A stretch of DNA of 13,116 bases from NCBI GenBank assembly GCA_027604005.1, contig JADGJT010000007.1:122538-135653 (forward strand), in the 5' to 3' direction. This DNA is from Dinochytrium kinnereticum. Taxonomy: Eukaryota; Chytridiomycota; Chytridiomycetes; Chytridiales; Chytridiaceae. Shown one piece after another: positions 1 to 13,116 of the stretch. The notes below the pieces were generated by a model. It worked only from the letters and a program-made list of their open reading frames with translations, did no database searches and was not told the origin of the DNA. The position numbers were made by a program, and so were the translations under genes. Positions within the stretch are counted from its first letter, which is position 1, and each line of letters begins with the position of its first letter.

Positions 1-117
1 TTTTGCTGTTAATTTTTCTGAGATAATTAAAATTTTAACCCTTTTTTTTTTACTTTTTATGCCCATACCCCCCCCCCCCCCCCCCCATCCTCTCTACACT
101 TTTCGCTACCCTAAAAG
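1..117 (+). other. 3' part of an intron in the PKA kinase gene
   Basis: This stretch is AT- and C-rich and continues no reading frame of the kinase. It ends in AG at 116-117, directly before codons reading N-I-L-L-D-K-D-G, the conserved segment after the kinase catalytic loop. The preceding K-P-E codons therefore lie in an upstream exon outside the window, and the junction is phase 0. The intron holds a T-run near 42-51 and a 19-base C tract at 68-86. Its 5' donor is outside the window. Confidence 0.8.
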
Positions 118-690
118 AACATTCTCTTGGACAAAGATGGACACATCAAGATAGCGGACTTTGGGTTCGCAAGGATCATCCATAGCCGAGAATCAGCCCT
201 TACCTTCTGCGGCACACCAGCCTACATGGCACCTGAAATCATTCTAAAGGTCGGATACACCAAAGCAGTGGACTGGTGGTCTCTAGGGATCGTCAGCTAC
301 GAGCTTCAAGCCGGTTACAGCCCCTTCCAAGCCGAAACTCCCATTCAGATTTATGAGAAGATTGTGGACGGTAAAATGCGATGGTCCTCGCAGATTGGAG
401 CAGTGTCCAAGGACATTCTAAAGCGGTTGCTTGAGATGGATCCTCATATTCGGATGGGTGCGGAGGGTGCAAAGGAGGTTAAGGCTCATAGTTGGTTCCG
501 GGATGTCGATTGGAAGGCTCATGAGGGAAGGATGTTTCCGGTTCCTTATAAACCGGCGGTGTTGAACGAGGAGGATATCAGCAACTTTGATGTCTACACT
601 GAGCCTAGTTCTGTCACGCAAATGCAGAAGGGGACTTTAGAGCTTGGGGCAGATGATCTTGCATATGATGAGTATTTTAAGGACTTTTGA
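118..690 (+). CDS. cAMP-dependent protein kinase (PKA) catalytic subunit, last exon (C-terminal 190 residues)
   Basis: This is the C-terminal lobe and tail of an AGC Ser/Thr kinase that phosphorylates Arg-rich substrates when cAMP releases the regulatory subunit. Numbering from the first codon of the exon, it shows DFG (14-16), the activation-loop Thr at 29 in T-F-C-G-T-P (equivalent to PKA Thr197), the APE motif (38-40), DWWSLG, and the sequence PIQIYEKIV that is nearly diagnostic of PKA. The tail has SNFDVY and ends in the FxxF hydrophobic motif (FKDF) right before the TGA. The Gly-rich loop, the VAIK lysine and the catalytic-loop Asp lie in upstream exons outside the window, so the gene is cut off here but not broken. 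The P+1 loop reads GTPAY where animal PKA has GTPEY. PKG or another AGC kinase is less likely because of the PIQIYEKI and SNFD signatures and the FxxF ending. Confidence 0.93.
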   Translation, partial: NILLDKDGHIKIADFGFARIIHSRESALTFCGTPAYMAPEIILKVGYTKAVDWWSLGIVSYELQAGYSPFQAETPIQIYEKIVDGKMRWSSQIGAVSKDILKRLLEMDPHIRMGAEGAKEVKAHSWFRDVDWKAHEGRMFPVPYKPAVLNEEDISNFDVYTEPSSVTQMQKGTLELGADDLAYDEYFKDF

Positions 691-1094
691 TTCTTGTGCT
701 TGCAGGTTGCAAGATTTGGGGGGGTGGTTGACTTTTGGAAGCTTGCCCAGCGCACATCAGAAGCAAAATAAAGCGCGCGTCCATGAGGAGTGGAGCGGTG
801 TCAGAGGAGTGTTCGCCTCCGTCTCTTGTTTTTTCATCCAACCAACTCTGCATAACTCAGCTTACGATACATTTACTTGACGCGTTTGCTGTTCGAGGGG
901 ACATGACCGTCTCGTCAATCCAAGCAGTGTGTATCCAAGCCAACCGCAACACACAAATTTCACAAAACGGTTTTTCTGTTTTCCCCCCCCCCCAAAAGCC
1001 AGTTCAACAGCATCTGGCCTGTCTGTCTCCACCTCGGTCGCTGCAGACGGGAAGTCGAGCTCAACGAAAAGGAAAGAGAAAAAAAGAAGACAGC
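691..1094 (+). other. Intergenic region between the PKA gene and the Gln-rich gene (3' UTR, promoter, 5' UTR)
   Basis: These 404 bases hold the kinase 3' end and the upstream region of the next gene. An AATAAA hexamer lies at 767-772. An 11-base C tract lies at 983-993, followed by a purine-rich stretch before the ATG at 1095. The frame of the downstream gene stays open through here, with in-frame ATGs at 783 and 903. However, the translated sequence has none of the Gln/Pro character of the protein, so I treat it as non-coding. Confidence 0.55.
767..772 (+). promoter_or_regulatory. Candidate poly(A) signal of the PKA gene
   Basis: A canonical AATAAA hexamer lies about 77 bases after the kinase stop codon, a plausible place for 3' end formation. 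Fungal poly(A) signals are degenerate, so one hexamer is weak evidence. Confidence 0.35.
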
Positions 1095-2306
1095 ATGAAC
1101 GGAAACGGATACTATGCACCCGCTGCGGAGGGTGTCAGCGGTGTCCTACCCCCAAAGCCAACCGCTCCTCCAAGGACGCAATCAAAAGCCTACACTGCTC
1201 CTTATGAAAACGCCATCGCTCAATCACCAACTCATGTCGGACCTCCAGCTGGACCTCCTCCTCCCCAAAAAGAGCTCCATCAATATGGAACCAAACCCGA
1301 GCCTCTTCCCCCAACTCCCACCTCAGCTGGTTTCCCTCCCAACCTCCAGCAGCAGCAACCTCCCCCCCCGAGCCCTGGGAACGGCCCGCCAGGTTACGGA
1401 TCTTCCATGACTTACGTTAGCAACGCCCCTCGCACCTCTAGCATTCCTGGGTCGGAATTAGCGGCTTCGGAGGGTCGGCCGTCTCCCCATCTGGGTTTGG
1501 GGACCAGGGAACCAGTGCCTCCTTCCCCTCAGCCGTATCAACAGCAGCCATCTTCACCTCAGCAGCAGCAGTTCCAACAGCAATATCAGCAGCCTCAGGG
1601 TTCTGCTCTCCCTCCATCTGGCGCTCCTCCATCTGCAGGGATTCAGTACAGTCCCATCTACAAGGCCGATTCTCAACCTCAACAGGGATTGGCGGCCCCT
1701 CCCGTCTTCTTTCAAGCCCCTCAGCAATCCGCTGATCCTGTTCCCGTTCCTTTTGGGGACGCTCCGCCAAGTGTGGCTCAGCAGCATCCCTTGCAGATGG
1801 CTGGTCAGCCTCCTCAGAATGCTCACACGGGAGCAGCGAGCTCTCCGGTTCATCCGCAACCGGCGAAGCATGGGTTCATGGATAAGTTCTTGAAGCCGAA
1901 ATCCAATGCGTCAAATCAGAGCCCTGCGATGGTTCAGCAGGAGTTCGCAATGCAACAGCAACAACAGCAAGGTGGCCTCCCCCAACCGCAGCAGCAGCAG
2001 CAGCAGCAGCAAGGCGGCAAGCGGTTCTCCTTTGGCTTGGGTGGAAGCAACTCTGCCCCATCTCAGGTGCAGGCCGCATCGAAGTCTGGATTTGGGAAGG
2101 TTTTTAAAGGGCTTGCGAAGGGAGGCAATCAGCCTGAGAATAAGCAGGCTTCTCAGTTTCAGCAGCAATCGGCTTCTCAGTTTCAGCAGCAACCAGCCTC
2201 GCAGTTTCAGCAACAGCAGGCGCCTCTGCAGCAGCAGCAACAGCAGTGGAGCCGTGACCCTGCGCAGGGTCAGCCTCAGTATGGTGCTCAGCAAGGGCAG
2301 CGTTAG
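1095..2306 (+). CDS. Gln/Pro-rich intrinsically disordered protein, 403 aa, unknown function
   Basis: Not recognised as a named family. The chosen ATG has A at -3 and is where Pro/Gln-rich sequence begins; the frame is open further upstream but looks like UTR. Residues 1-250 are Pro/Ser/Gln-rich with PPxP runs. Residues 257-270 (AKHGFMDKFLKPKS) form a basic, aromatic, amphipathic motif resembling a dehydrin K-segment. Gln runs follow at about 287-292 and 299-306, then two short basic-aromatic islands (KRFSFG near 309; KSGFGKVFKGLAKGG at 330-344). Residues 352-375 are three tandem copies of ASQFQQQ plus one variable residue, encoded by a 24-bp repeat. The tail is Gln-rich. There is no signal peptide or membrane segment. 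It could be a scaffold, condensate or membrane-associated stress protein; that is inference. No intron is needed and the frame is uninterrupted. Confidence 0.75.
   Translation: MNGNGYYAPAAEGVSGVLPPKPTAPPRTQSKAYTAPYENAIAQSPTHVGPPAGPPPPQKELHQYGTKPEPLPPTPTSAGFPPNLQQQQPPPPSPGNGPPGYGSSMTYVSNAPRTSSIPGSELAASEGRPSPHLGLGTREPVPPSPQPYQQQPSSPQQQQFQQQYQQPQGSALPPSGAPPSAGIQYSPIYKADSQPQQGLAAPPVFFQAPQQSADPVPVPFGDAPPSVAQQHPLQMAGQPPQNAHTGAASSPVHPQPAKHGFMDKFLKPKSNASNQSPAMVQQEFAMQQQQQQGGLPQPQQQQQQQQGGKRFSFGLGGSNSAPSQVQAASKSGFGKVFKGLAKGGNQPENKQASQFQQQSASQFQQQPASQFQQQQAPLQQQQQQWSRDPAQGQPQYGAQQGQR
2148..2219 (+). repeat. Three tandem 24-bp units encoding ASQFQQQ(S/P/Q)
   Basis: The units lie at 2148-2171, 2172-2195 and 2196-2219. 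Each encodes A-S-Q-F-Q-Q-Q followed by S, P or Q. The first two copies are nearly identical at DNA level and the third has synonymous changes (GCC TCG, CAA). The repeat sits inside the Gln-rich tail and keeps the reading frame. Confidence 0.9.
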
Positions 2307-3087
2307 CCACAGATATAGCCGAAAAGTTAGATGGGAAAGAGGGTTATGTCTGAGGGATTGATTATAGATGATGCTTGGGATTTCCATATCTCGTGGCTGT
2401 TTTGTTTGCTTGTTTGTTTTTTGTTTTTTTTGCCTCTCGGAGAAGCTACTTTCCTTTACTTCTGAGTTCACCGGGCCTCTTTCTTGTTTCTTTTTCTGTC
2501 GTTTTGGTTTTTTCTTTTCTTTCCCTTTCCGCCCCCCCTTTTTTTTTCCAAGGTTTTAACATGAGACTGTCTGGCGTTGACAGCTCTCAGTCATACTTTC
2601 ACCTCCTTAAGACACCTATATAGTTTTCATCTAGTTACTGAGCCGGTAACGGATAGGGACTGCTGTCATTTCACTTATGTATCTTGCTTTTTGCCTCTGG
2701 TCTTTCCTCCTAGTTCTTGCAGTTTTTCTCGTTTTTAATTTCGGGCAGAGGAATATGTTTGTTGCTGTTTCTTGGATGTATTTTGTTAACGCTGGTTCGT
2801 TGAAGTGTGGACGGACAACCACATACTGCCTTATCTTTTGCTTCCTGATCTTCTGTGGTTTTGTGTACGCAGTTGCTGGGCTTTCCAAGTTCTTTGCTTA
2901 TTCTTAGCACCTCTTTTTTTTCTCTCTTTACCTCTCGTGGCTAGCTCTCTGAACTAGCGAGATTGTTCGAACGTCGCTGCAGAGGTCCCTGAGACTGACT
3001 TGCCATCTCTGTGCCGATTATTTTCTTGTTCATAGATTTCAACCACAAAACCATCTTACTCCAAATTGTCATCACAGACCTGAAAAC
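2307..3087 (+). other. Intergenic region, T/C-rich, no supported gene
   Basis: These 781 bases are strongly pyrimidine-rich on the + strand, with many T and C runs. They should hold the 3' UTR of the Gln-rich gene and the promoter and 5' UTR of the phosphatase gene. A 76-codon frame at 2677-2907 would encode a hydrophobic peptide, but that is expected from T-rich codons (Phe, Leu, Val, Cys). I see no tRNA, repeat or clear TATA element. Confidence 0.5.
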
Positions 3088-4501
3088 ATGAGACCCCGCC
3101 TGATCATCCTTGTTCGCCACGGCGAGTCCGAGTTGGCAGTTGACCGCGACATGTAAATCCACTTGATGCGATTCAAACGCATTCGTAACGCTCCGCATGC
3201 TGTTTTGTTAGACTCTGCCACACGGCTGATCACCGCATTCATTTGACGGAGAGGGGACAGGAGCAGGCTGTTGAGGCTGGGAAGAGATTGAGGGGATTGG
3301 TTGGCGAGGGAGAGAGAGTGAGGTTTTATGTTTCGCCTTATCAAAGAACTAGGGAGACCTTTTGGTTGATGTCCCGGGCATTGGATAAGGAGGTTTGCCT
3401 TTTTTTTTTGATTCTGAGGCGTCTGTTGGATCGTGTTTTTTTAATTTCTTCTTTTTGTTCTGTTTTGACCCTTCTCTGCCCTTTCTTTGATAGCGGTACG
3501 ATTATTTTGAAGAGCCGAGGTAAGTGTTTTTGCTTTTTAACCTGACATTAAAACTCACACCAACCAACAACAAAAACAAACATCATGAAAAACAAAATAA
3601 ATTAGACTTCGAGAGCAAGACTTTGGCAACTTTCAATCCAAAGACCAAATGGAAGAATGTAAAGCTGAGCGAACGCGATACGGTCATTTGTAAGCATTGG
3701 GGAGAAGGGGGGGAGTTCTTAAGCAAAGCAATTCAACCAAACTTGAACTGACCCTTACTTTTTTTTTTTTTTTTTTTTTTTGCTTCTCTCATGGAATAAC
3801 TAGTTACTATCGGTTTCCTGGAGGAGAATCCGGGGCAGATGTCTATGATCGCATGTCGACTTTTTTTGAGACGCTTCATCGGCAGTTTAAGAGGAGTGAT
3901 TTTCCGGAAGTGCTTGTTCTTGTCTCGCATGGCCTTTCCTCAAGGTTAGTTCTCGGAGGCGGTTGTGTGGGGTCCCAACACCGTATCTTTGTCGGTGGCT
4001 AAAAAAAAAATGGGGAAGGCGGTTTTTTCTGCTGATGATGACCCCACTTTGCGTCTTTTTTGCTTGCCTTTGACGTTGTGTTAATTTATTTAAACGACTC
4101 CATCAATCCATTCTGTCTCCGTGCCACCATTCTCATAACCTCTCTGTCTCTTCTCTCCCACCCTTAGACTCTTCCTCATGCGTTGGTTTCACTGGAACGT
4201 CGAAGACTTTGAGTCCCTTGACAACCTTGACCACTGTGAAATGGTTATTATGGAAAGAGAGGAGTGTCATCTTCCTCGAAAGGATGGTGAACCTCCAGGA
4301 CCTTTGCACAAATTCCGTATTGCGACCCCGTTGTGTAGATGGAGGGAACCGGCGTTTCCGGACAGGATGAGGGAATTTGCGCCGCAGTTGTTGGCACCCC
4401 CCTTTCCACCTTATTTTTGTGAAAGGGGAAACGGTGGGGTTGGGAGTTTGAATTCGGATTTGATGGGGGAGGTGAAGGGTGTCACTGATTTTTCTAGTTG
4501 A
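3088..4501 (+). CDS. DET1: DET1-like histidine phosphatase (phosphoglycerate mutase superfamily), six exons, 276 aa
   Basis: Exons: 3088-3152, 3212-3392, 3494-3519, 3606-3689, 3804-3944, 4168-4501; all five introns are GT-AG and total coding length is 831 bases. Histidine phosphatases use a phospho-histidine intermediate. Catalytic residues: R10-H11-G12 in LVRHGES, R67 in SPYQRTRET, E94 in LREQDFGNFQ, H161 in LVSHGL. Further family signatures are YGHFYYRFPGGES and YDRM, with FLMRWFHW following the second His. The M-R-P-R-L-I start and LREQDFGNFQ place it with the fungal DET1 (YDR051C) group of acid phosphatases, linked in yeast to sterol transport, rather than with glycolytic mutases. It is probably cytosolic, as no signal peptide is seen. 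Residues after about 200 diverge and are Pro/Gly-rich. The start has A at -3 and puts the RHG motif where the family has it. Exon 3 is only 26 bases. Reading through without splicing hits a stop immediately after exon 1. Confidence 0.93.
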
Positions 4502-4850
4502 TTGTGGGGTTGGGGGTATTCTGTTTGTGATGTTTTATACCTTTGTCATGGGATGTATTATTATTTTGGAGGAAGGCCGTACTTTGTGATATTTTTTTTT
4601 TTTTATTATCTGTTTTTAAATGAATAGTAGTGTAGAAGATGAAAAAGAAAATTCCCCTTTTGCTTTCTTTATCATCCTTCTTATCCCGCCACTAATTACT
4701 ATGATGGCATTAGGTTGCTTTCGAGACCAGAATTACGTCCAACCTTTTTTTTTGTAAGAGGGTTAAAGACCAATAGTGTAAGAGGGGTCAGTGAAATAAC
4801 AGCTAGGTATATATAAAAAAAAAACAAAAACCAACCATCACTTCGGTATT
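4502..4850. other. Convergent intergenic region, AT-rich 3' UTRs
   Basis: These 349 bases separate the stops of two convergent genes. They contain T-runs (about 4591-4604 and 4745-4754) and an AT-rich stretch with TATATATA then an A-run near 4808-4824. The TATA-like element sits downstream of both genes, so it is more likely part of 3' end signals than a promoter. No gene is supported here. Confidence 0.5.
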
Positions 4851-7357
4851 TCAGAGCACCTCCACCGCAATTGGCTCGTGTGTGAGCGCGGTTGGATACA
4901 GCGAAACTGATGATGAACTTCTTCGAAGGCTTCCAGTGTCAAAGTGGAATCCCGTTCCATAATAATTGTCCTTCTGTTTCTCTGCCGACCTGTTTCTCCC
5001 AGCCTCCATAATAATGCTCAAAAGGTCCTCGTCAACAAGAACCGCGGTTCCATAATAAGCATCCTTCTGTTTCTCTACCGATCTGTTTCTCTCAGCCTCC
5101 ATAATGTTCAAAAGGTCCTTCATATGAATCGTAAAAGGGGAAGATCTCTTTTCCACACGCATCATCTTCGTAAGCGATCTTACCATAGCGTCCTTAATCC
5201 TCCGAGCTCCTTCGGGGAAGCTCTCAAACAGTGAATAAAGAAATTTGGATAATTCATCCACACCATCCCAGACCAATCCGTTGTCAAAATCTGAAGGGAT
5301 GCGGATGGGTGATGAAACAAAAATGCGTTGGAATACTCTCCCAACACTCGAAATGCCTTTACCTCGGCAACCTTTCTTCATGCCCCAGATCTTTGACTCT
5401 GGTGCATTCACGGGACACACTTCACATATTCTGGAAGGATGGATATCGTACTCGGAAATTGCAGTTCTAGATTCAGTCTGGTTTAAATAGGGATCCCCTG
5501 ACTTGGCCGCAACGTCGCGAGCCCGAAATCTGTTCGCCAAAAAAGAGTTCTTCCAATTGTCGGTCGTTCTCATTACCATCATCTCAGTGACTATCTTGAA
5601 TAAGACATCCCTCATCATCTTCACCGCCTTTAAAGAGTGGTTTAAAAGCGTCTCTAGAGATCTGATAAACGCGCCAATTCCATAACCGACACAACTCCAA
5701 AAGTCTTCCCATCCAGACTCCTTCTGCTTCTCAGAGAGCGTCAAGTCGGAACGGCTAACTGGACACACATCGTAGATTCTGGACGGATGAGTACCGTCCT
5801 CGAGAATTGTGACTTTAAATCCAGTCTGGTTCATAAAGCTCGACTTGGCCGCAAGGTCGCGAGCCCGAAATCTGTTCGTCAAAAAATAGTCGTACTCCTT
5901 AAACGGAGCAGAGTTCTTCCAATTGTCGGTCGTTTTCATTACCATCATCTCCGTGAATATCTTGAATGTGACATTCCTCATCATCTTCACCACCTTCAAA
6001 GAGTGGTTCAAAATCCTCTGGAGTGATCTGATAAACGCGCTTATTCCATAACCGACACAACTCCAAAAGTCTTCCCATCCAGACTCCTTCTGCTTCTTAG
6101 AGAGCGTAAAGTCGGAACGGCTAACTGGACACACATCGTAGATTCTGGACGGATGAGTACCGTCCTCGAGAATTGTGACGTTAAATCCAGTCTGGTTCAT
6201 GAAGCTCGACTTGGCCGCAAGGTCGCGAGCCCGAATTCTGTTCGTCGAAAAAAAGTCGTCCTCCTTAAACGGAGCAGATTTCTTCCAATTGTCGGTCGTT
6301 TTCATTACCATCATCTCCGTAAACATCTGGAATGAGACATCCCTCATCATCTTCACCGCCTTCAAACATTGCTCCAAAAACGTCTCTAGAGATCTGATAA
6401 ACGCGCCGAGTTCATAGCAGATCCAACTCCAAAAGTCTTCCCATCCAAACTCTTCCTGCTTCTCCCAGAGCGTCAAGTCGGAAGAGTCTAAAGGGAGAGC
6501 TTTTGAATTATGAACATCCATCCCCAACATTGTGACGTTGAATCCAGTCTGCTTTAGGATGGAAGCAACGACCTCTGACTTGGCTTCTGCAAGGTTGTGA
6601 GGCCGAAGGCCGTTCGTCGAAAAAAAGCAGTCATCCTCAAAAAGAGCGAAGTTCTTCCGATGATTTCCCTTCTTCATTACCGTAGTCTCCATAAACGTCC
6701 TCAAATCATCATCTTTCATTGCCATCACCTGACCGAGTCCCACCTCACATTGCTCACCTGGAGCGATCTTTGGTAACTGCTCGCTGCCAGCCAGTGCAAA
6801 GGACCTGATAACCTGTCTCGCCCTCCGAATCTTTTTGAGCAACACCGTCTTCACCTTCCTCATGGTCTTCATAATCTTCTGAGAGAGCGTCCGGAACCAC
6901 TTAGAGATGTTGTCGATCCAAACCTCCTGGAACCAACCCCGATCTTCCTCGGAAGAGGGAGCGGGCTCAGGCTCTCCGACGATGATAAGAGAACGAGATG
7001 CATCGGCAATTTGGTGTTCATTGAAGGTGTTTATGGGGCCATGAATGTTCAAAACTTCCAAGTCAGTGGGCTCCGATGCCATTGGGAGATGGTCAGTGTG
7101 GTTGTCGGTAACAATGTTCGTCGCCATCTGCTGGTCAAGGATGTGGGGATAGACGACGGAAAGATGAGGGTGCGTTTGGGTTGAAATTGAGCAGGCGATG
7201 CAGAGAGAAGAAGACCAACCTTTGAAGGAAGCAACGCCGCATGGCTGGACGAAGGCAAGACGCCAAAGAGCCAGCACAGAATCACGGTGAGGGCAGCTGG
7301 CCCCCAAAGCTTGAACCTCGCTGGGGCCTTGAGGCCCAAGGTCATTGCGTGTTTCAT
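4851..7357 (-). CDS. Predicted secreted tandem-repeat protein, about 804 aa, two exons, unknown family
   Basis: Exon 1 is 7357-7220 (46 codons), exon 2 is 7127-4851 (or from 7130), joined by a phase-0 GT-AG intron of 92 or 89 bases. Exon 1 encodes a textbook signal peptide: a basic N-region, the core AALTVILCWLFGVL, then PSSSHA|A at about residue 40. The long frame in exon 2 has an ATG of its own at 7307, but that start would lose the signal peptide. The mature protein has an acidic N-terminal stretch, a basic helical half-repeat (about 6939-6820), a diverged repeat R0, two close 122-residue repeats R1 and R2, a decayed R3, a 31-residue duplication, and a Ser/Arg-rich tail. Each repeat has TTDNWK, RARDLAAKS, NQTGF, HPSRIYDVCPV, GWEDFWSC and a helix ending TEMMVMK. 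There are at least eleven N-x-S/T sequons and two Cys per core repeat. There is no transmembrane segment or obvious anchor after the signal peptide. I recognise no family; a surface or secreted role is inferred. Confidence 0.8.
4951..5102 (-). repeat. 31-residue (93-bp) tandem duplication near the C-terminus
   Basis: The unit MEA(E/G)RNRS(V/A)EKQKD(A/N)YYGT begins at 5102 and again at 5009, a 93-base spacing. The shared + strand word CCTTCTGTTTCTCT occurs at 4970 and 5063. The second copy runs only to about YYGTG. A DLL(N/S)I segment precedes both copies. It is unrelated to the 122-residue module. Confidence 0.85.
5155..5567 (-). repeat. Decayed downstream copy R3 of the 122-residue module
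   Basis: It starts in register with TTDNWKNS but then lacks about 8 residues (the APFKEDDF segment). It keeps NRFRARDVAAKS, NQT and HPSRICEVCPV, then gains an unrelated insert rich in Gly and Arg. The C-terminal helix is still alignable (ELSKFLYSLFES...IKDAMVRSLTKMM against AFIRSLETLLNHS...VKMMRDVLFKIVTEMM). The reading frame is intact throughout. Confidence 0.65.
5568..6299 (-). repeat. Two tandem 366-bp repeats (R1, R2) coding for 122-residue modules
   Basis: R1 is 6299-5934 and R2 is 5933-5568. Each starts with the codons for T-T-D-N-W-K, and the marker word on the + strand recurs at 5551, 5917 and 6283, exactly 366 bases apart. The two modules differ at roughly 17 of 122 residues by eye (about 86% identical), with no indels. 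This is in-frame tandem duplication in the coding sequence. Confidence 0.95.
6300..6671 (-). repeat. Diverged upstream copy R0 of the 122-residue module
   Basis: It aligns with R1/R2 through FEDDCFFSTN, QTGFNVT, SDLTLWEKQ, GWEDFWSW, GAFIRSLETFL and LKAVKMMRDV. The middle is diverged and slightly longer, and the Cys of the DVCPV motif is absent. It is the first recognisable full-length module after the N-terminal region. Confidence 0.8.
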
Positions 7358-7942
7358 GATATTCGATGAAGTCAAAGTAGTTTCAGATCACTCGAGGGGA
7401 AGTCGCTTGCTTTTTGTTCAGACAACTGTTTGGTTCGGAGTTGAAAAATATCATTAATGAATTTGCAAAGTGCTTGACGATGCCAGCCAATCATGCACAC
7501 TGGGGGTCCTGACACTGGCTGAGTTTGAAGCTCTGATGGAAGGAAGTGAGGATGAGGGAGGCGAAACGCAGGCGCCAATGTTGATCAAGAAGGTATGTTT
7601 ATTTTTGTAGATAAGTATGGAGGGCTATAGCTCAAGGTACACACATCACAGAGGACATTGTTGAGTAGAAAGGAAAATCAAAAAAAAGTAGCGAAATCAC
7701 CGCTCATGTGAGAACTATAAAGAAATGCGACTTGAAGCGATATTGCAGCCTCGTTGAAATGGAAGAAGAGAACAAGGAAGAAACAGGAACGAAAAGAGAA
7801 AAGAGAAAGATTTAAGAATGAGTTCTCCAAAGTGGGTTTGTGAATGATTAGAGCAAAAAAGAAGGGGATAGAAAGACATGACCATGCAAAAGATCATTGC
7901 ATCGTTAACTGCCTTCAAGGAGACGGTGTTTAGTAGAATAGC
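7358..7942 (-). other. Intergenic region: promoter of the secreted-protein gene and 3' UTR of the SEL1-like gene
   Basis: These 585 bases lie between two genes on the - strand. The part next to 7357 should carry the promoter of the secreted repeat protein. The rest is purine-rich on the + strand (7745-7870), so pyrimidine-rich in the sense direction. On the - strand an AATAAA reads from 7603 to 7598, about 340 bases past the SEL1-like stop, too far to assign firmly. CCAAT words on the + strand occur near 7484 and 7575. No gene is supported. Confidence 0.45.
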
Positions 7943-9310
7943 TTAACGCCTCCTAGCCGAGTGGTCGGACGACTGGGCGGACCCCACATCGCCCTTTTTT
8001 GGGGGGGCCCTCACTGCCGACTTTGACCTGACCGCGGGCTCTGATTTTGCAGTCACCACGCTACCCCTCTCCCTCACAACCGACCTAGACCGTCCCCCTG
8101 GCTCTGAAGCCCCACCACCCTGACGAATTCCCAAGAACCGGACAGACGGCAAATGCCCCAACGCCGCGGCGATCCTGATCAACGCCAGAGCTGACGCGTT
8201 GGACTTGTCGTCGCGACTACGAAACACCCCAGTCGGATCCAACACCCTCGCCACGTCGTCCACATCGCGGGCAATGCGGGTCCTGGCAGATGGTGAGGAG
8301 AGGAGCTTTGGAGGCGCTAGAAGAAGCATTGCGAGAGCGTGAAGGGGTTCGGGGTGGACTGGGGTGGAGGCTAGAGCTGCTGAATGGAGGTGATGGAGGC
8401 TGTCAATGGCGGTGGATTGGGCGAGGGGTGGATCTGATTTTTGGAGGGTTTCGGCCTGCTTGATGAGACGATTGTGAAGCCAGAGGAGGGATCCGGGGTG
8501 ATTTGCTGCTGCCGCTGTGATATGCAGTTCGTTAATGGCGGCGTCGGTTGCGGGGTTTCGCTTTGACGGCGATGAAGTATCCATGTGCTGTTTTGACGGA
8601 TTTCTCTTTGATTTTGACGCAGTCGTTGATTGATCGTGACTGGCAATGAGGGAGACTCGATCGTGTTCAAGGAGGAGAGCGGCGTTGTGAGCGGCGGTGG
8701 GACTGCCTCCATCCACAGCACGGAGGTAGAGGGAGAAGGCCATAGGATAGTTTGGGACGACAGGTTGATCTTGGAACGGGATACCGGTGATGAGGAGGTT
8801 TGCGGCGAGAAGGATGGCAGGGACATGGCCTCCTGAACCGGTGAAGACGTTATCGGGGAGGGCGAGACGATCAATGATGGAGACTGCCTCTGAGATGAGG
8901 GATGAGCGGAGATCAGATGGAAGGAGGGCGGCGTGGTCAAGGATGTGGCTGGCGAGACGGTACTGGGGGTCTGGTTCGTCTGGACCAGCTCGGTTTGCTT
9001 CGTTTTGAAGTTCTTCGAGGGTTGCCATGATGGTTTCTGTTGAGGGCGATGGTGGTTGTGATGGAGTTGTTGTTTTTGAAGCATGATGGTTGGAGGATGA
9101 GGAGACATGGAGGGAGTTGCGGTGGAGGACTGAGCGGAGGGAGGAGGTGACGGTTGCGTGAGCAGCGGCAAAGTCCCCAGCCCTTGCAGCGGAGGCGACG
9201 GAGATGATGCATGCCCTTGCAGCTTCCAGATAGGATGTTGACGGCGGAGTCGGCGATTGGAGGGGGTGGGGGTGAGTGTGAGCAGGGCCATGGTTGCTCG
9301 TTGGCAGCAT
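7943..9310 (-). CDS. SEL1-like repeat protein (Skt5/Chs4-like architecture), 455 aa
   Basis: SEL1 repeats are TPR-like helical hairpins used for protein-protein scaffolding; in fungi the Skt5/Chs4 group activates chitin synthase. The clearest unit is residues 191-215 (AFSLYLRAVDGGSPTAAHN followed by AALLLE), matching the SEL1 pattern A-x2-L-Y-x2-A-x2-G-x4-A. A second clear unit is ALALIRIAAALGHLPSVRFLG at 374-394. Weaker units lie near 116-150, 258-282 and 303-331. Residues 1-95 are Pro/Ser/Thr/His-rich apart from a helical patch (27-64). Residues 398-455 form a basic Arg/Ser/Lys tail ending SARRR, with no CaaX box as found in Skt5. The chosen ATG at 9310 has A at -3 and sits directly after a tetranucleotide repeat; an internal Met at residue 95 is an alternative start. 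The frame has no intron. Assignment to SEL1 is fairly secure; the link to chitin synthesis is only inferred. Confidence 0.72.
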   Translation of the reverse strand: MLPTSNHGPAHTHPHPLQSPTPPSTSYLEAARACIISVASAARAGDFAAAHATVTSSLRSVLHRNSLHVSSSSNHHASKTTTPSQPPSPSTETIMATLEELQNEANRAGPDEPDPQYRLASHILDHAALLPSDLRSSLISEAVSIIDRLALPDNVFTGSGGHVPAILLAANLLITGIPFQDQPVVPNYPMAFSLYLRAVDGGSPTAAHNAALLLEHDRVSLIASHDQSTTASKSKRNPSKQHMDTSSPSKRNPATDAAINELHITAAAANHPGSLLWLHNRLIKQAETLQKSDPPLAQSTAIDSLHHLHSAALASTPVHPEPLHALAMLLLAPPKLLSSPSARTRIARDVDDVARVLDPTGVFRSRDDKSNASALALIRIAAALGHLPSVRFLGIRQGGGASEPGGRSRSVVRERGSVVTAKSEPAVRSKSAVRAPPKKGDVGSAQSSDHSARRR

Positions 9311-9316
9311 GATGGG

Positions 9317-9348
9317 ATGGATGGATGGATGGATGGATGGATGGATGG
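9317..9348 (+). repeat. (ATGG)8 microsatellite
   Basis: Eight perfect ATGG units begin 7 bases outside the start codon of the - strand SEL1-like gene; in the sense direction they read CCAT and fall in its 5' leader. A tetranucleotide array is prone to length change. Confidence 0.97.
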
Positions 9349-9383
9349 AGGGAGGGAGGGAGGGAAGGGGAGGGGAGGGAAGG
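9349..9383 (+). repeat. (AGGG)4 plus further G-runs, G-quadruplex-capable
   Basis: Four AGGG units (9349-9364) are followed by GGGG, GGGG and GGG runs separated by one or two A. More than four G3+ tracts with very short loops meet the usual sequence rule for a G-quadruplex, on the template strand of the SEL1-like gene. Confidence 0.85.
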
Positions 9384-9540
9384 TGAGGCAGCGGATGGAT
9401 GGTTGAAATGTGCGGAGGGATGAGGCTCCGCTCACTCAGTCAGAAATACCAAAGTGAAACCTTGCAATATTCAAGAGATATTCAAGCAATATTCCCTGTG
9501 CGACATCCAGACAATAAATTTATTTTAGATTTCTGCTGCT

Positions 9541-9641: not shown

Positions 9642-9707
9642 CCACCCACAGGAGCCTGGACAGAGCCGTAGCGGAAGAGGGGGAAGGAAGGGTGGGACAT
9701 CAGCACA

Positions 9708-12700
9708 ATGGTTGTCGATCACACTGTGCAGCAGCAGCAGCAAAGCATGCATCGCAAGATGCCAAGCGCATCCGGTCTCCTCCTCCATTCTTCTGCTTCT
9801 CCCGCATCTTCATCAACACCGATCGCAACCCCGGATCCCCTGCATCAGACCCTCCATCACAATGGTCATCCCCACTTTCACCATCGTCCGCAACCCCATC
9901 ACCAGCAGCAGCAGCATGCCGTTAAAATGCAGCAGTCGCAGCCTCAGGAGCAGCAGCAGCAACAGCAGCACCATCATGGGCTAAGAAGGGTGGCTCCGTT
10001 TGACTCTTCTACCTCTTCTTTGTCGTCCTCGCCCTCGCAAAATGCTGGAGTGGGAGGGGGGCCCTCACGAATCTCCACCATTCTTCCACTTCCCCGAAAG
10101 CTCTCGGGCAGCAAGCTGTTCACGCAGGAAGAAATCGACTCCATATTTGCTTCCATCTCACCCTCCTCTTTGATCGTTCCTTCTTCAGCTTTGGCCCCAA
10201 ATGCTGCCCCCGCCTCCATTGTCTCCACCGCTTCAACAGAGGATTATGGAGGGCTGACCACCGTGCAGCTTCTGGGATCTCGATCAACAACCATCACTGC
10301 TGGAGGGCAGTCGGGAGGCTCCTCCTCCACTGTGTCCCCAGTCTTGCCTTCTCCGCAAGTTGGCAAGTCAACATCCATTCTAGCTTCGTACCCCAAACCC
10401 GTCACCCACTCGTCCCCGCTGGCCGGTCCCCCATCTTTTCCCACCCCAACCTCGTCCTCGTCGTCCTCTCCCTCATCTTCTATTCCACATTCACAACAAC
10501 CTGCATCGTCAATGCAAAAAGGATCCAACAACATCCCTCAGCACCCAGCCACAACTCGTCTTCTATCTCCACTATCAAGTCCCAGTCCGGATGGATACGA
10601 TGCCGCGGATGTGTATGGGATGTATATGGACACCCCGTCACCCTCACCTAAACCCATGAGTCCGATCGCTCGGGCGTCTGGTCAGGCCATCACACCGGCC
10701 TCTATGTCGCCGTCGGAGGCCAATGAGCGACTGGATGGGTCGCCGATGGTTCTGTATGGGAGGGTGAAGAAGGAGAGGAGTGGGTCTCGAAAGGTTAGAA
10801 CCCCAGAGGAGGTTGGGGCCCGTGGTTTTGAAGCAGGAGGGGAGAATGAGTACTCGGATGATGATTGGTCGGATGTTGGGGAGTTGCCTTGGTCTCCTCC
10901 GCGAAAGCCGTCAGAAGATGTCTCCGCCCAGGTTTTGTCGGCGTCGTCGGGATTAGTGGTAAAGAAGGTTGACACGAGCCTTCCACCAAGAACGGATTCG
11001 GTGTTGAAGGCTGCCAGACAGTTGCCGAATTCCAGCACCGTAGCCATGTCGTTTCATAGAGACTTGCAGCAGCAGCAGCTACAACAGCAACAAGGGCCTT
11101 CTAATGATATTCCGAGGAGGGTGGCGAGTCCTCCTAGACAGGAGATTGCGATCGTGAAATCTTCTCAGCAGAATGTGGGGATGGCGAGGGTGTCAGCCGA
11201 ACGAGTTTTACCTTCTTCGTCATCATCGTCTTCTTTGACATCTGCTTCCAAGCCTCGTCCCACTCCTATTTCCATCCCCAACTCCGCCTCAGCAGGGCTG
11301 GGATCTACAGCTAGTCGAACTATCAAACAACAACTCTCATCGTCCTCCTCCGCCTCCACGAACCCCCCACTCCCCCGCTCATCTTCCCCATCCCCACACA
11401 GCGCCTCCCACCAACCTCGATCCCACCACCACCACCACCACCACCACCACCACCCCGCACATCATCTCCGCACCCCTTCCGCAGGATCCGCCCCGCCTTC
11501 AACCCATCACCCAGACCTCCTCTTCCCACCGTCACTGCTGAACAATCCAGCATTTCCGGCTTTGTACCCGAGTCAGGCGGCCGCAGTGGCAGCCGCCGCG
11601 CAGCTGAGAGTCGCCAGCATGTTAAGCAATCGCACCGCGACCGGTCCAATGGTGTTGCCGTTTTATCCGCCTTTCATGGGACCCATCGGTCCAGGAGGGT
11701 TACCGATCTTGCCAACTCATTTTGGACAGGGAGCGGTTGGGCCTGGGTTTCTGGGAGCTTCACCGGGGGCTGCCGCTCAGATTGGAACGAGTGGGGGAGG
11801 GTTTGGAACGACGGGTGGGGTACAGGCTGGGGGGTTGCAGAAGGGTGTCACGGGGGTGCTTACTTCGGAGGCGGTTGCTGCGAAATCGACGGCGGTGGCT
11901 GCTGGGGTTGGAGGTGGAGGTGGGAAACCGGGACCTGTTTCTTCTTCGTCGCATTCGGCGAGTGTGCCGTGGCCGTTAGGGTTCCCGATGATGGCGACGA
12001 CTGGCGTGACAGCCAACACGACGACGACGACGCCTTTGGGGGGTGGTGGCGGGATGTTTCAGAACCCAACCAACACGACGACGGCGACTACACCGGGTAC
12101 GGCTGGTGTCTCTGCGATGCCGACAACGACGCAGGGGTTGCCTGTTCGGTCGACCAGTAGGAATAATCCTGCCACAGGGCCTGTGGGGGCGTTGGGAGGG
12201 GGCGGAGGAGGAGGCAAGGTGTTTGGGGATGTTGGGGTGCCATCGTTTTTGACGCATTTTGATCCTCACGCGGCTGCGATGGCTGCTGCTGCTGTTGCTG
12301 CTGCTCATGCTGCAGGTGCAGGTGCGGGAGGGGCTGGCGCTGGACGACCGCCTCGACCTACTATGGGACAGTTGGCTGCTGCGATGGCTGCTGCGACTGC
12401 TGCCGCTGCTGCGGCGGCTGCTGCAGCCACTGCGTCAGCCTCAGGGCCGGCGACGACGCACCTCGGAGGCTTAGTAGGGAAAGGTGACAGGAATCCGGCG
12501 GTTGCGGCTTGGGTTGAAGAGGTTGGGAGGATTGATCCTGCTGAGTTTGAGGAGAGGGTTCGGAGGGCGAGGTGCTCGACTGTTTCCTCGAGGAAGAGTT
12601 TGGCGTTGTGTGATGAGGATGATGGGATTGATGCGAATGATTCTGTGTCTAGGGTTGGGGCTGCTGTTGCTGCTTCTGGGCAGGAGGAGCTGGTCAGACT

Positions 12701-13116
12701 TGCCGTTGAGGCTTTGACAGCTGCCACCGCCGCCTCCAATCTTCCGTCATCAAAGAAACCTGACGTCCCTCCTGCTGTGACTCTACCCCAATCCCAGCCC
12801 GTCCTACCACACCATCATCAAGCCGTCATCCCCGCCACGGTGTTGGTACCATTTCTCCACCCGGCCCCCCAGAGAGGCATGGACCTGACCTCGATGATGC
12901 TTGACCCCTCCCCTCCGCACCCGGCGCCACCTCAGTCTGATGAGGAGTCCGTCGTAGATTACACCAAGCAACCGGTCGCCCCCGCCTCCCTCACCAAGAA
13001 TGTTCGAAAGAGGGCGTCGAGTCGTGGTATGGCTTGGATGAGACGGAATAGCTTGGATTTGGATGTTGGCGGGGGTGGGGGGGATATCGGAGGTGGAGGG
13101 GGGGGAGAGGAGTACC
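9708..13116 (+). CDS. Very long low-complexity (poly-Q/H/S/A/G/T) protein, at least 1136 aa, 3' end outside window
   Basis: The ATG at 9708 has A at -3 and G at +4 and is the first ATG after an in-frame TAG at 9669. From there I read 1136 codons with no stop up to the window edge. That length without a stop, in codons with clear amino-acid bias, strongly supports a real gene. Features by residue: poly-Gln near 8-12 and 65-90 with many His; Ser/Pro-rich to about 330; an acidic patch EYSDDDWSD at about 381; Gln run near 450; Ser runs; a His10 run at 573-582; Gly/Thr-rich 680-830; Ala-rich runs at 855-870 and 890-910; a charged, possibly helical patch (WVEEVGRIDPAEFEERVRRAR) near 938-958; basic RKRASSR (1100-1106) and RRNSL (1112-1116). 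No catalytic domain, signal peptide or membrane span is visible. It has the composition of a nuclear regulator or scaffold, but I do not recognise a family; a conserved domain may lie past the edge. Confidence 0.78.
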   Translation, partial: MVVDHTVQQQQQSMHRKMPSASGLLLHSSASPASSSTPIATPDPLHQTLHHNGHPHFHHRPQPHHQQQQHAVKMQQSQPQEQQQQQQHHHGLRRVAPFDSSTSSLSSSPSQNAGVGGGPSRISTILPLPRKLSGSKLFTQEEIDSIFASISPSSLIVPSSALAPNAAPASIVSTASTEDYGGLTTVQLLGSRSTTITAGGQSGGSSSTVSPVLPSPQVGKSTSILASYPKPVTHSSPLAGPPSFPTPTSSSSSSPSSSIPHSQQPASSMQKGSNNIPQHPATTRLLSPLSSPSPDGYDAADVYGMYMDTPSPSPKPMSPIARASGQAITPASMSPSEANERLDGSPMVLYGRVKKERSGSRKVRTPEEVGARGFEAGGENEYSDDDWSDVGELPWSPPRKPSEDVSAQVLSASSGLVVKKVDTSLPPRTDSVLKAARQLPNSSTVAMSFHRDLQQQQLQQQQGPSNDIPRRVASPPRQEIAIVKSSQQNVGMARVSAERVLPSSSSSSSLTSASKPRPTPISIPNSASAGLGSTASRTIKQQLSSSSSASTNPPLPRSSSPSPHSASHQPRSHHHHHHHHHHPAHHLRTPSAGSAPPSTHHPDLLFPPSLLNNPAFPALYPSQAAAVAAAAQLRVASMLSNRTATGPMVLPFYPPFMGPIGPGGLPILPTHFGQGAVGPGFLGASPGAAAQIGTSGGGFGTTGGVQAGGLQKGVTGVLTSEAVAAKSTAVAAGVGGGGGKPGPVSSSSHSASVPWPLGFPMMATTGVTANTTTTTPLGGGGGMFQNPTNTTTATTPGTAGVSAMPTTTQGLPVRSTSRNNPATGPVGALGGGGGGGKVFGDVGVPSFLTHFDPHAAAMAAAAVAAAHAAGAGAGGAGAGRPPRPTMGQLAAAMAAATAAAAAAAAAATASASGPATTHLGGLVGKGDRNPAVAAWVEEVGRIDPAEFEERVRRARCSTVSSRKSLALCDEDDGIDANDSVSRVGAAVAASGQEELVRLAVEALTAATAASNLPSSKKPDVPPAVTLPQSQPVLPHHHQAVIPATVLVPFLHPAPQRGMDLTSMMLDPSPPHPAPPQSDEESVVDYTKQPVAPASLTKNVRKRASSRGMAWMRRNSLDLDVGGGGGDIGGGGGGEEY
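11424..11453 (+). repeat. (CAC)10 trinucleotide repeat encoding His10
   Basis: Ten perfect CAC codons in frame give an uninterrupted ten-His run in the long low-complexity protein. The codons are pure, which suggests recent slippage expansion. Poly-His runs often mark nuclear-speckle localisation in animals; that role is not established here. Confidence 0.95.

What the first reader, a model, noticed from the sequence alone, without database searches (positions are those of the whole stretch)
4851..7357. Unrecognised secreted protein built from 122-residue tandem modules, with the signal peptide on its own exon
Seen directly: an exon-1 frame with a classic signal peptide (core AALTVILCWLFGVL, cleavage after PSSSHA), an in-phase GT-AG intron, and a long frame of near-identical modules. 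Each module has conserved Trp (GWEDFW), two Cys, N-glycosylation sequons and an amphipathic helix. I know of no fungal family with these motifs. Secreted, repeat-based, sequon-rich proteins are typical of fast-evolving surface or host-interaction proteins, so this is the best candidate for an undescribed system in the window.
Basis: partly seen in the sequence, partly recalled or inferred. Interest (0 to 1): 0.75.

Follow-up and report, generated by a model that had tools for sequence, protein, structure and literature searches.

The report
Orphan secreted helical-repeat protein, chytrid fungus
A chytrid fungus carries a gene for a probably secreted protein made of repeated helical modules; it belongs to a tiny family of otherwise unknown proteins, whose other intact member looks anchored in the cell membrane.

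Summary
On the minus strand, 4851-7357, there is a signal-peptide exon (7357-7220), a plausible 92-nt GT-AG intron and a 758-codon open exon. "Near-identical modules" is overstated: of four modules, two are 87% alike and the outer two are divergent. The organism is Dinochytrium kinnereticum, inferred from a named protein on the same contig.

B shares a signal peptide, an N-terminal helix segment, one module and a YPxALTHEPxA motif, and adds a transmembrane exon plus a short tail. I found no such exon beside the window gene (A), though an unrelated hydrophobic stretch lies in another frame just past its stop.

No Pfam or NCBIfam match reached its cut-off. No homologue turned up outside this genome, but those searches also failed to link A with B. 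AlphaFold finds one long helix in the module modelled and no fold. Function is unproven. I favour a secreted, multivalent surface glycoprotein; decay after loss of the anchor is a serious rival.

The parts
7220..7357 (-). Exon 1: 46 codons, signal peptide (proposed cut after residue 40)
   Evidence: aligns with the signal peptide of paralogue B
7128..7219 (-). Proposed intron, 92 nt, AAG|GTTGGT...CAGCAG| (an acceptor at 7131 is equally possible)
   Evidence: no RNA evidence; the last intron implied by the B protein record also starts AAG|GTTGGT
4851..7127 (-). Exon 2: 758 codons and TGA stop
   Evidence: protein record P0001 (743 aa) starts 15 codons inside it, at 7082, without the signal peptide
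6798..6938 (-). N-terminal cationic amphipathic helix segment (net charge +11), shared with paralogue B
   Evidence: 32% identity over 90 residues including this stretch; hydrophobic moment 0.53 at 100 degrees; own-genome match to B with a 60-residue piece, E=2.4e-4; coordinates
6303..6704 (-). Module M1 (divergent first half)
5937..6302 (-). Module M2 (122 codons)
   Evidence: 87% identical to M3
5571..5936 (-). Module M3 (122 codons); structure model: helix in module residues 76-121, pLDDT 82-87 in blocks 91-120
5151..5570 (-). Module M4: first 65 residues like M3, rest divergent
4950..5102 (-). Short internal duplication (MEAxRNRSxEKQKDxYYGT twice)
   Evidence: seen directly in the translation; coordinates
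4854..4898 (-). C-terminal motif YPTALTHEPIAVEVL, shared with B and the C21 copy; the frame stops directly after it
   Evidence: coordinates
4765..4821 (-). Hydrophobic 19-residue stretch in another frame, just past the stop; status unknown, no similarity to B's transmembrane exon
   Evidence: Kyte-Doolittle 2.12, reached in 9 of 1000 simulated sequences of the same composition

Best explanation
The window gene (A) encodes a secreted, glycosylatable, helix-rich protein. It belongs to a small surface-protein family, so far seen only in Dinochytrium kinnereticum, whose other intact member looks like a type I membrane protein. Proposed route: the signal peptide takes A into the secretory pathway; lacking B's transmembrane exon, it is released or held in the wall. 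Its four module helices and the cationic N-terminal helix pack with one another, with the related helices of B, or on another surface, giving a multivalent surface or matrix glycoprotein. Shown: frame, modules, paralogues, transmembrane segment in B's record. Inferred with fair support: signal peptide, splice, secretion, absence of an anchor. Inferred only: self-association, binding, any role on another organism.
For: Open frame far beyond chance. Exon 1 aligns with B's signal peptide. The N-terminal helix segment, one module and the C-terminal motif are shared with B. B's record carries a transmembrane segment, peak Kyte-Doolittle 3.09 over 19 residues, and a tail; both are legible in the broken C21 copy. 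The 350 bases past A's stop show no similarity to that exon: scores at or below the shuffle mean in all three frames. The M3 model is one long helix, its best-predicted part; hydrophobic moments are high near 100 degrees. 12 sequons.
Against: No RNA or protein evidence. A hydrophobic stretch of unusual strength lies in another frame just past A's stop (9 of 1000 simulations), so 'no anchor' is not certain. The genome search that failed to find B's transmembrane exon beside A also failed to list A's own copy of the motif contained in the query, so its sensitivity was limited. Module dN/dS is 0.52-0.73 and the neutral tests are not significant. Module model mean pLDDT 55.5, full length 30.2. The first 44 residues of exon 2 do not align significantly to B (804 of 1000 shuffles reach the score). 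Shuffling does not keep hydrophobic clustering, so the exon-1 result is optimistic. P0001 omits exon 1.
Confidence: 0.45

Rival explanations
1. A is a decaying copy of the membrane-anchored gene: it lost its anchor, expanded its modules by unequal exchange under relaxed constraint, and may do nothing.
For: B's transmembrane exon was not found beside A. The C21 copy is already dead, with 12 in-frame stops in its main match. Among modules the constraint signal is not significant: P(no stop) under neutral substitution 0.37 and 0.19; P(nonsynonymous share this low) 0.11 and 0.57. The out-of-frame hydrophobic stretch past the stop could be a relic.
Against: 804 codons without a stop despite deep divergence from B (32% identity in the conserved N-terminal part); signal peptide still recognisable; length differences between modules keep the frame.
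Confidence: 0.25
2. A is anchored after all: the hydrophobic stretch at 4821-4765, in another frame past the annotated stop, is part of the real protein through a splice form or because the assembly is inexact there.
For: The stretch (Kyte-Doolittle 2.12 over 19 residues, followed by basic residues) is stronger than in 991 of 1000 simulated sequences; B and C21 carry a transmembrane segment.
Against: No similarity to B's transmembrane exon. Of 22 GT-AG pairs that would reach it, none keeps the conserved THEP motif. It lies in T-rich low-complexity DNA and was noticed after the fact.
Confidence: 0.12
3. A is not secreted: translation starts inside exon 2 (as in record P0001) and the signal-like frame upstream is a coincidence; the protein is an intracellular helical-repeat protein.
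For: The protein record starts at an internal Met; the GT-AG junction is not unique.
Against: B has its signal peptide in one continuous frame with its body, and A's exon 1 aligns to it.
Confidence: 0.1
4. A is a secreted, membrane-active protein: the cationic N-terminal helix and amphipathic module helices act on membranes of another organism.
For: Very cationic amphipathic N-terminal segment (+11); secretion signal; no anchor found.
Against: M1-M4 helices are near neutral (-3 to +3); B has the same kinds of helix while apparently anchored in the fungus's own membrane; no expression data.
Confidence: 0.08

Closest known systems
Paralogue B, HDU67_009005 of Dinochytrium kinnereticum (hypothetical protein, P0002)
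   Same: Signal peptide, N-terminal helix segment, one module of the same kind (24% identical to M3), C-terminal YPxALTHEPxA motif
   Different: Middle filled by eight 37-39-residue repeats with one Cys each instead of extra modules; transmembrane segment and tail present
Fungal adhesins with tandem repeats (review PMC6023273; start of abstract in the listing and passages)
   Same: Secretion signal, tandem repeats, N-glycosylation sites
   Different: No hydrophobic C-terminal (GPI-type) tail in frame; Ser+Thr 15% of exon 2, no Ser/Thr stalk; helical 122-residue module. One adhesin in that review, Bad-1, has 24-residue disulfide-stabilised repeats with a single helix
RAYH candidate effectors of Synchytrium endobioticum (PMC6572847; passages, section 17)
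   Same: Predicted secreted family restricted to one chytrid
   Different: RAYH is absent from exon 2; 148 and 75 members in two isolates there against three loci found here

Membership tests
Surface-protein family of D. kinnereticum (A, B, C21) | N-terminal signal peptide | tested here: met
   Sequence features and alignment to B; no SignalP run; none seen in the C21 copy
Surface-protein family of D. kinnereticum (A, B, C21) | Shared N-terminal helix segment, module, YPxALTHEPxA motif | tested here: met
   Pairwise BLASTP without composition correction, E=1e-8 and 3e-7; own-genome E=2.8e-5
Type I membrane protein like B | Transmembrane exon and cytoplasmic tail | tested here: not met
   Present in B's record and legible in C21; not found beside A, with the caveat of the out-of-frame hydrophobic stretch
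Classical GPI-anchored fungal adhesin | C-terminal hydrophobic GPI signal | tested here: not met
   A ends YPTALTHEPIAVEVL; the hydropathy scan finds only the signal core above 1.4
Classical GPI-anchored fungal adhesin | Recognised ligand-binding domain | tested here: not met
   No Pfam family at its cut-off
RAYH candidate effectors | RAYHxxVFExLKxLF motif | tested here: not met
   RAYH absent from exon 2; exon 1 read by eye
Mrr_cat_2 (PF13156), best Pfam hit | Score at the gathering cut-off | tested here: not met
   18.5 and 19.2 bits against 22; the stretch spans the end of M1's helix and the start of M2
Secreted protein in vivo | Found outside the cell or in the wall | not testable with these tools
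   needs RNA or proteomics

The most novel reading that the evidence does not exclude
A and B form a soluble/anchored pair: the secreted multi-module protein binds the single matching module helix on the membrane-anchored paralogue, building a chytrid surface coat or recognition system in which each paralogue has expanded a different internal repeat.
Probability: 0.1. Interest if true: 0.6.

Novelty: new variant of a known kind. Interest (0 to 1): 0.35.

Why it matters
Adhesion molecules outside Ascomycota and Basidiomycota are sparsely described (PMC6023273, listing and passages). A small family with one apparently anchored and one apparently soluble member, each with a different amplified repeat, is a compact case of how surface proteins may diversify in chytrids. 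It also points to a protein record that has probably lost its signal exon. Otherwise it is one more orphan secreted protein, so interest is moderate.

Tried and rejected
Organism: I first suspected Synchytrium from genome size and read passages and one section of PMC6572847; the named paralogue then pointed to D. kinnereticum. Subtelomeric location: the three loci lie within about 21 kb of a contig end, but none of four telomere-like patterns occurs in the stretches held and contigs are short, so I do not claim it. B's transmembrane exon beside A: not found. Selection inside modules: not significant. Structure: mean pLDDT 55.5 (module, five rows) and 30.2 (full length, two rows), so no fold search was run. 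PDB by sequence was searched with the module profile and with B, not with full-length A. Pfam hits such as Mrr_cat_2 and IL6 are below cut-off. Literature: six searches; I saw titles and abstract starts, and none of the titles listed concerns this gene; two of the six returned nothing, none used a name of this gene. For 'Dinochytrium' four papers were listed, one of them seen in passages (PMC12075339).

Full report
What is in the window. The minus-strand frame 4851-7382 is open for 843 codons; 500 Markov sequences of exon-2 length and dinucleotide content gave a longest open run of 221 codons. An ATG at 7357 in another frame opens a signal-like peptide, and a 92-nt GT-AG intron (7219-7128) joins it in phase to the long frame, giving 804 residues with 12 sequons.

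Modules. TRF reports 2.6 copies of a 366-bp unit at 90% matches. At protein level there are four units: M2 and M3 (87% identical), M1 (58-59%) and M4, which resembles M3 over its first 65 residues (61%) and then diverges. AlphaFold on M3, with the three other modules and the B module as alignment, gives mean pLDDT 55.5 and pTM 0.28; residues 1-65 are below 50 and residues 76-121 form a single long helix. The hydrophobic moment near 100 degrees beats shuffles at p<0.02 in seven of eight helix segments; the eighth, a piece of the C21 copy, gave 0.053. A full-length model on a two-row alignment failed (mean pLDDT 30.2).

Where it comes from. The window is G000:C7:122538-135653 of a 22.4-Mb assembly in 558 contigs. 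The paralogue, recorded with a contig of the same 148,510 bases, is HDU67_009005 of Dinochytrium kinnereticum, family Chytridiaceae. From recall, not from a call: this chytrid was isolated with weakened dinoflagellate cells and can be grown in culture.

The family. A search of the own genome with exon 2 finds itself and one more place, C7:10494-10778, E=2.8e-5. That place is a second gene, B (C7 about 8.3-11.0 kb). A search with B finds A again (E=4.4e-5) and a third locus on C21, with 12 in-frame stops in its main match. A and B share an N-terminal helix segment (32% over 90 residues), one module, and the motif YP(T/I)ALTHEP(I/L)A. B's middle holds eight repeats of 37-39 residues, six of them beginning CFA. 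So each paralogue amplified a different internal unit. These counts are lower bounds, as the search scores only its best candidates.

The anchor. B's record (P0002) continues, through an intron after the motif, into a transmembrane segment and a short tail (peak Kyte-Doolittle 3.09). The same segment and tail are legible in C21. A genome search at E up to 10 with motif, transmembrane segment and tail lists eight matches: seven at B and C21 and one weak place on C7 at 91.7 kb (E=0.34), none beside A. It did not list A's own copy of the motif, so it was not very sensitive. A direct comparison of the 350 bases past A's stop with B's transmembrane exon gives scores at or below the shuffle mean in all three frames. 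In another frame of those 350 bases, however, there is a hydrophobic stretch (4821-4765, Kyte-Doolittle 2.12), as strong in only 9 of 1000 simulated sequences; 22 GT-AG pairs could reach it but none would keep the conserved THEP motif. It may be a relic, an unrecognised anchor, or chance in T-rich DNA. A convergent histidine-phosphatase gene (His_Phos_1) appears to end at 4501.

Is exon 1 real? Against B's signal peptide exon 1 scores 42 (shuffle mean 21.6, sd 4.1; 1 of 1000 shuffles reach it). The spliced first 90 residues score 45 (2 of 1000). The upstream sequence in the unspliced frame scores 17, under its shuffle mean. The first 44 residues of exon 2 do not align significantly to B (804 of 1000 shuffles reach the score), so the junction itself is supported only by order and phase. 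Shuffling does not keep hydrophobic clustering, so the exon-1 figure is optimistic.

Is the protein under constraint? dN/dS is 0.60 for M2/M3, 0.73 for M1/M2 and 0.52 for M1/M3 second halves, on few changes. Under neutral substitution the chance of no stop is 0.37 (M2/M3) and 0.19 (M1/M3), and the nonsynonymous share is not significantly low (P 0.11 and 0.57). Constraint since the A/B split is implied by the open frame and the conserved ends; recent relaxation cannot be excluded.

Known families. Pfam: best hit Mrr_cat_2 at 18.5 and 19.2 bits against a cut-off of 22 for A, none for B. NCBIfam: nothing near a cut-off. PHROGs best E=0.037. PDB: module profile best E=0.66, B none up to E=1. Three searches of 5.8 billion proteins returned only the two proteins themselves. 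Candidates must share exact five-residue words, and only 7991, 7994 and 5587 were scored; the search with A did not return B, nor did B return A, although both are in the database. Homologues elsewhere as distant as A is from B would therefore be missed, and no other chytrid genome could be searched.

Reading. I take A to be a secreted, helix-rich, glycosylatable protein related to a membrane-anchored surface protein. Its most likely mode is multivalent helix-helix association at or near the cell surface (inferred). The main rivals are decay after loss of the anchor (0.25) and an unrecognised anchor (0.12).

Noticed in passing
L018 (G000:C21:10001-16000), about 645-2952, minus strand: Broken third family copy with several in-frame stops and no signal peptide that I could see, but a still legible transmembrane segment and tail.
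   Followed up: partly
L004 2289-5007, minus strand: Paralogue B carries eight 37-39-residue repeats with one Cys each, with its strongest period at 113 residues, about three units.
   Followed up: partly
window 4765-4821, minus strand: Strongly hydrophobic stretch in another frame just past the stop of the finding's gene, in T-rich DNA.
   Followed up: partly
window 4851-7082, minus strand: Protein record P0001 (743 aa) starts at an internal Met and has no signal peptide; probably an incomplete gene model.
   Followed up: partly
window 3088-4501, plus strand: Histidine phosphatase superfamily gene that seems to have several short introns, convergent with the finding.
   Followed up: no
window 115-690, plus strand: C-terminal part of a protein kinase gene (Pkinase E=2.4e-33).
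   Followed up: no
window 7943-9439 (-) and 9672-13115 (+): Long open frames with no Pfam family at its cut-off; the second is full of Gln, Ala, Ser and His runs.
   Followed up: no
window about 68-86, about 3758-3781 and other places: Homopolymer tracts (poly-C, poly-T) and a GGAT array at 9315-9365.
   Followed up: no
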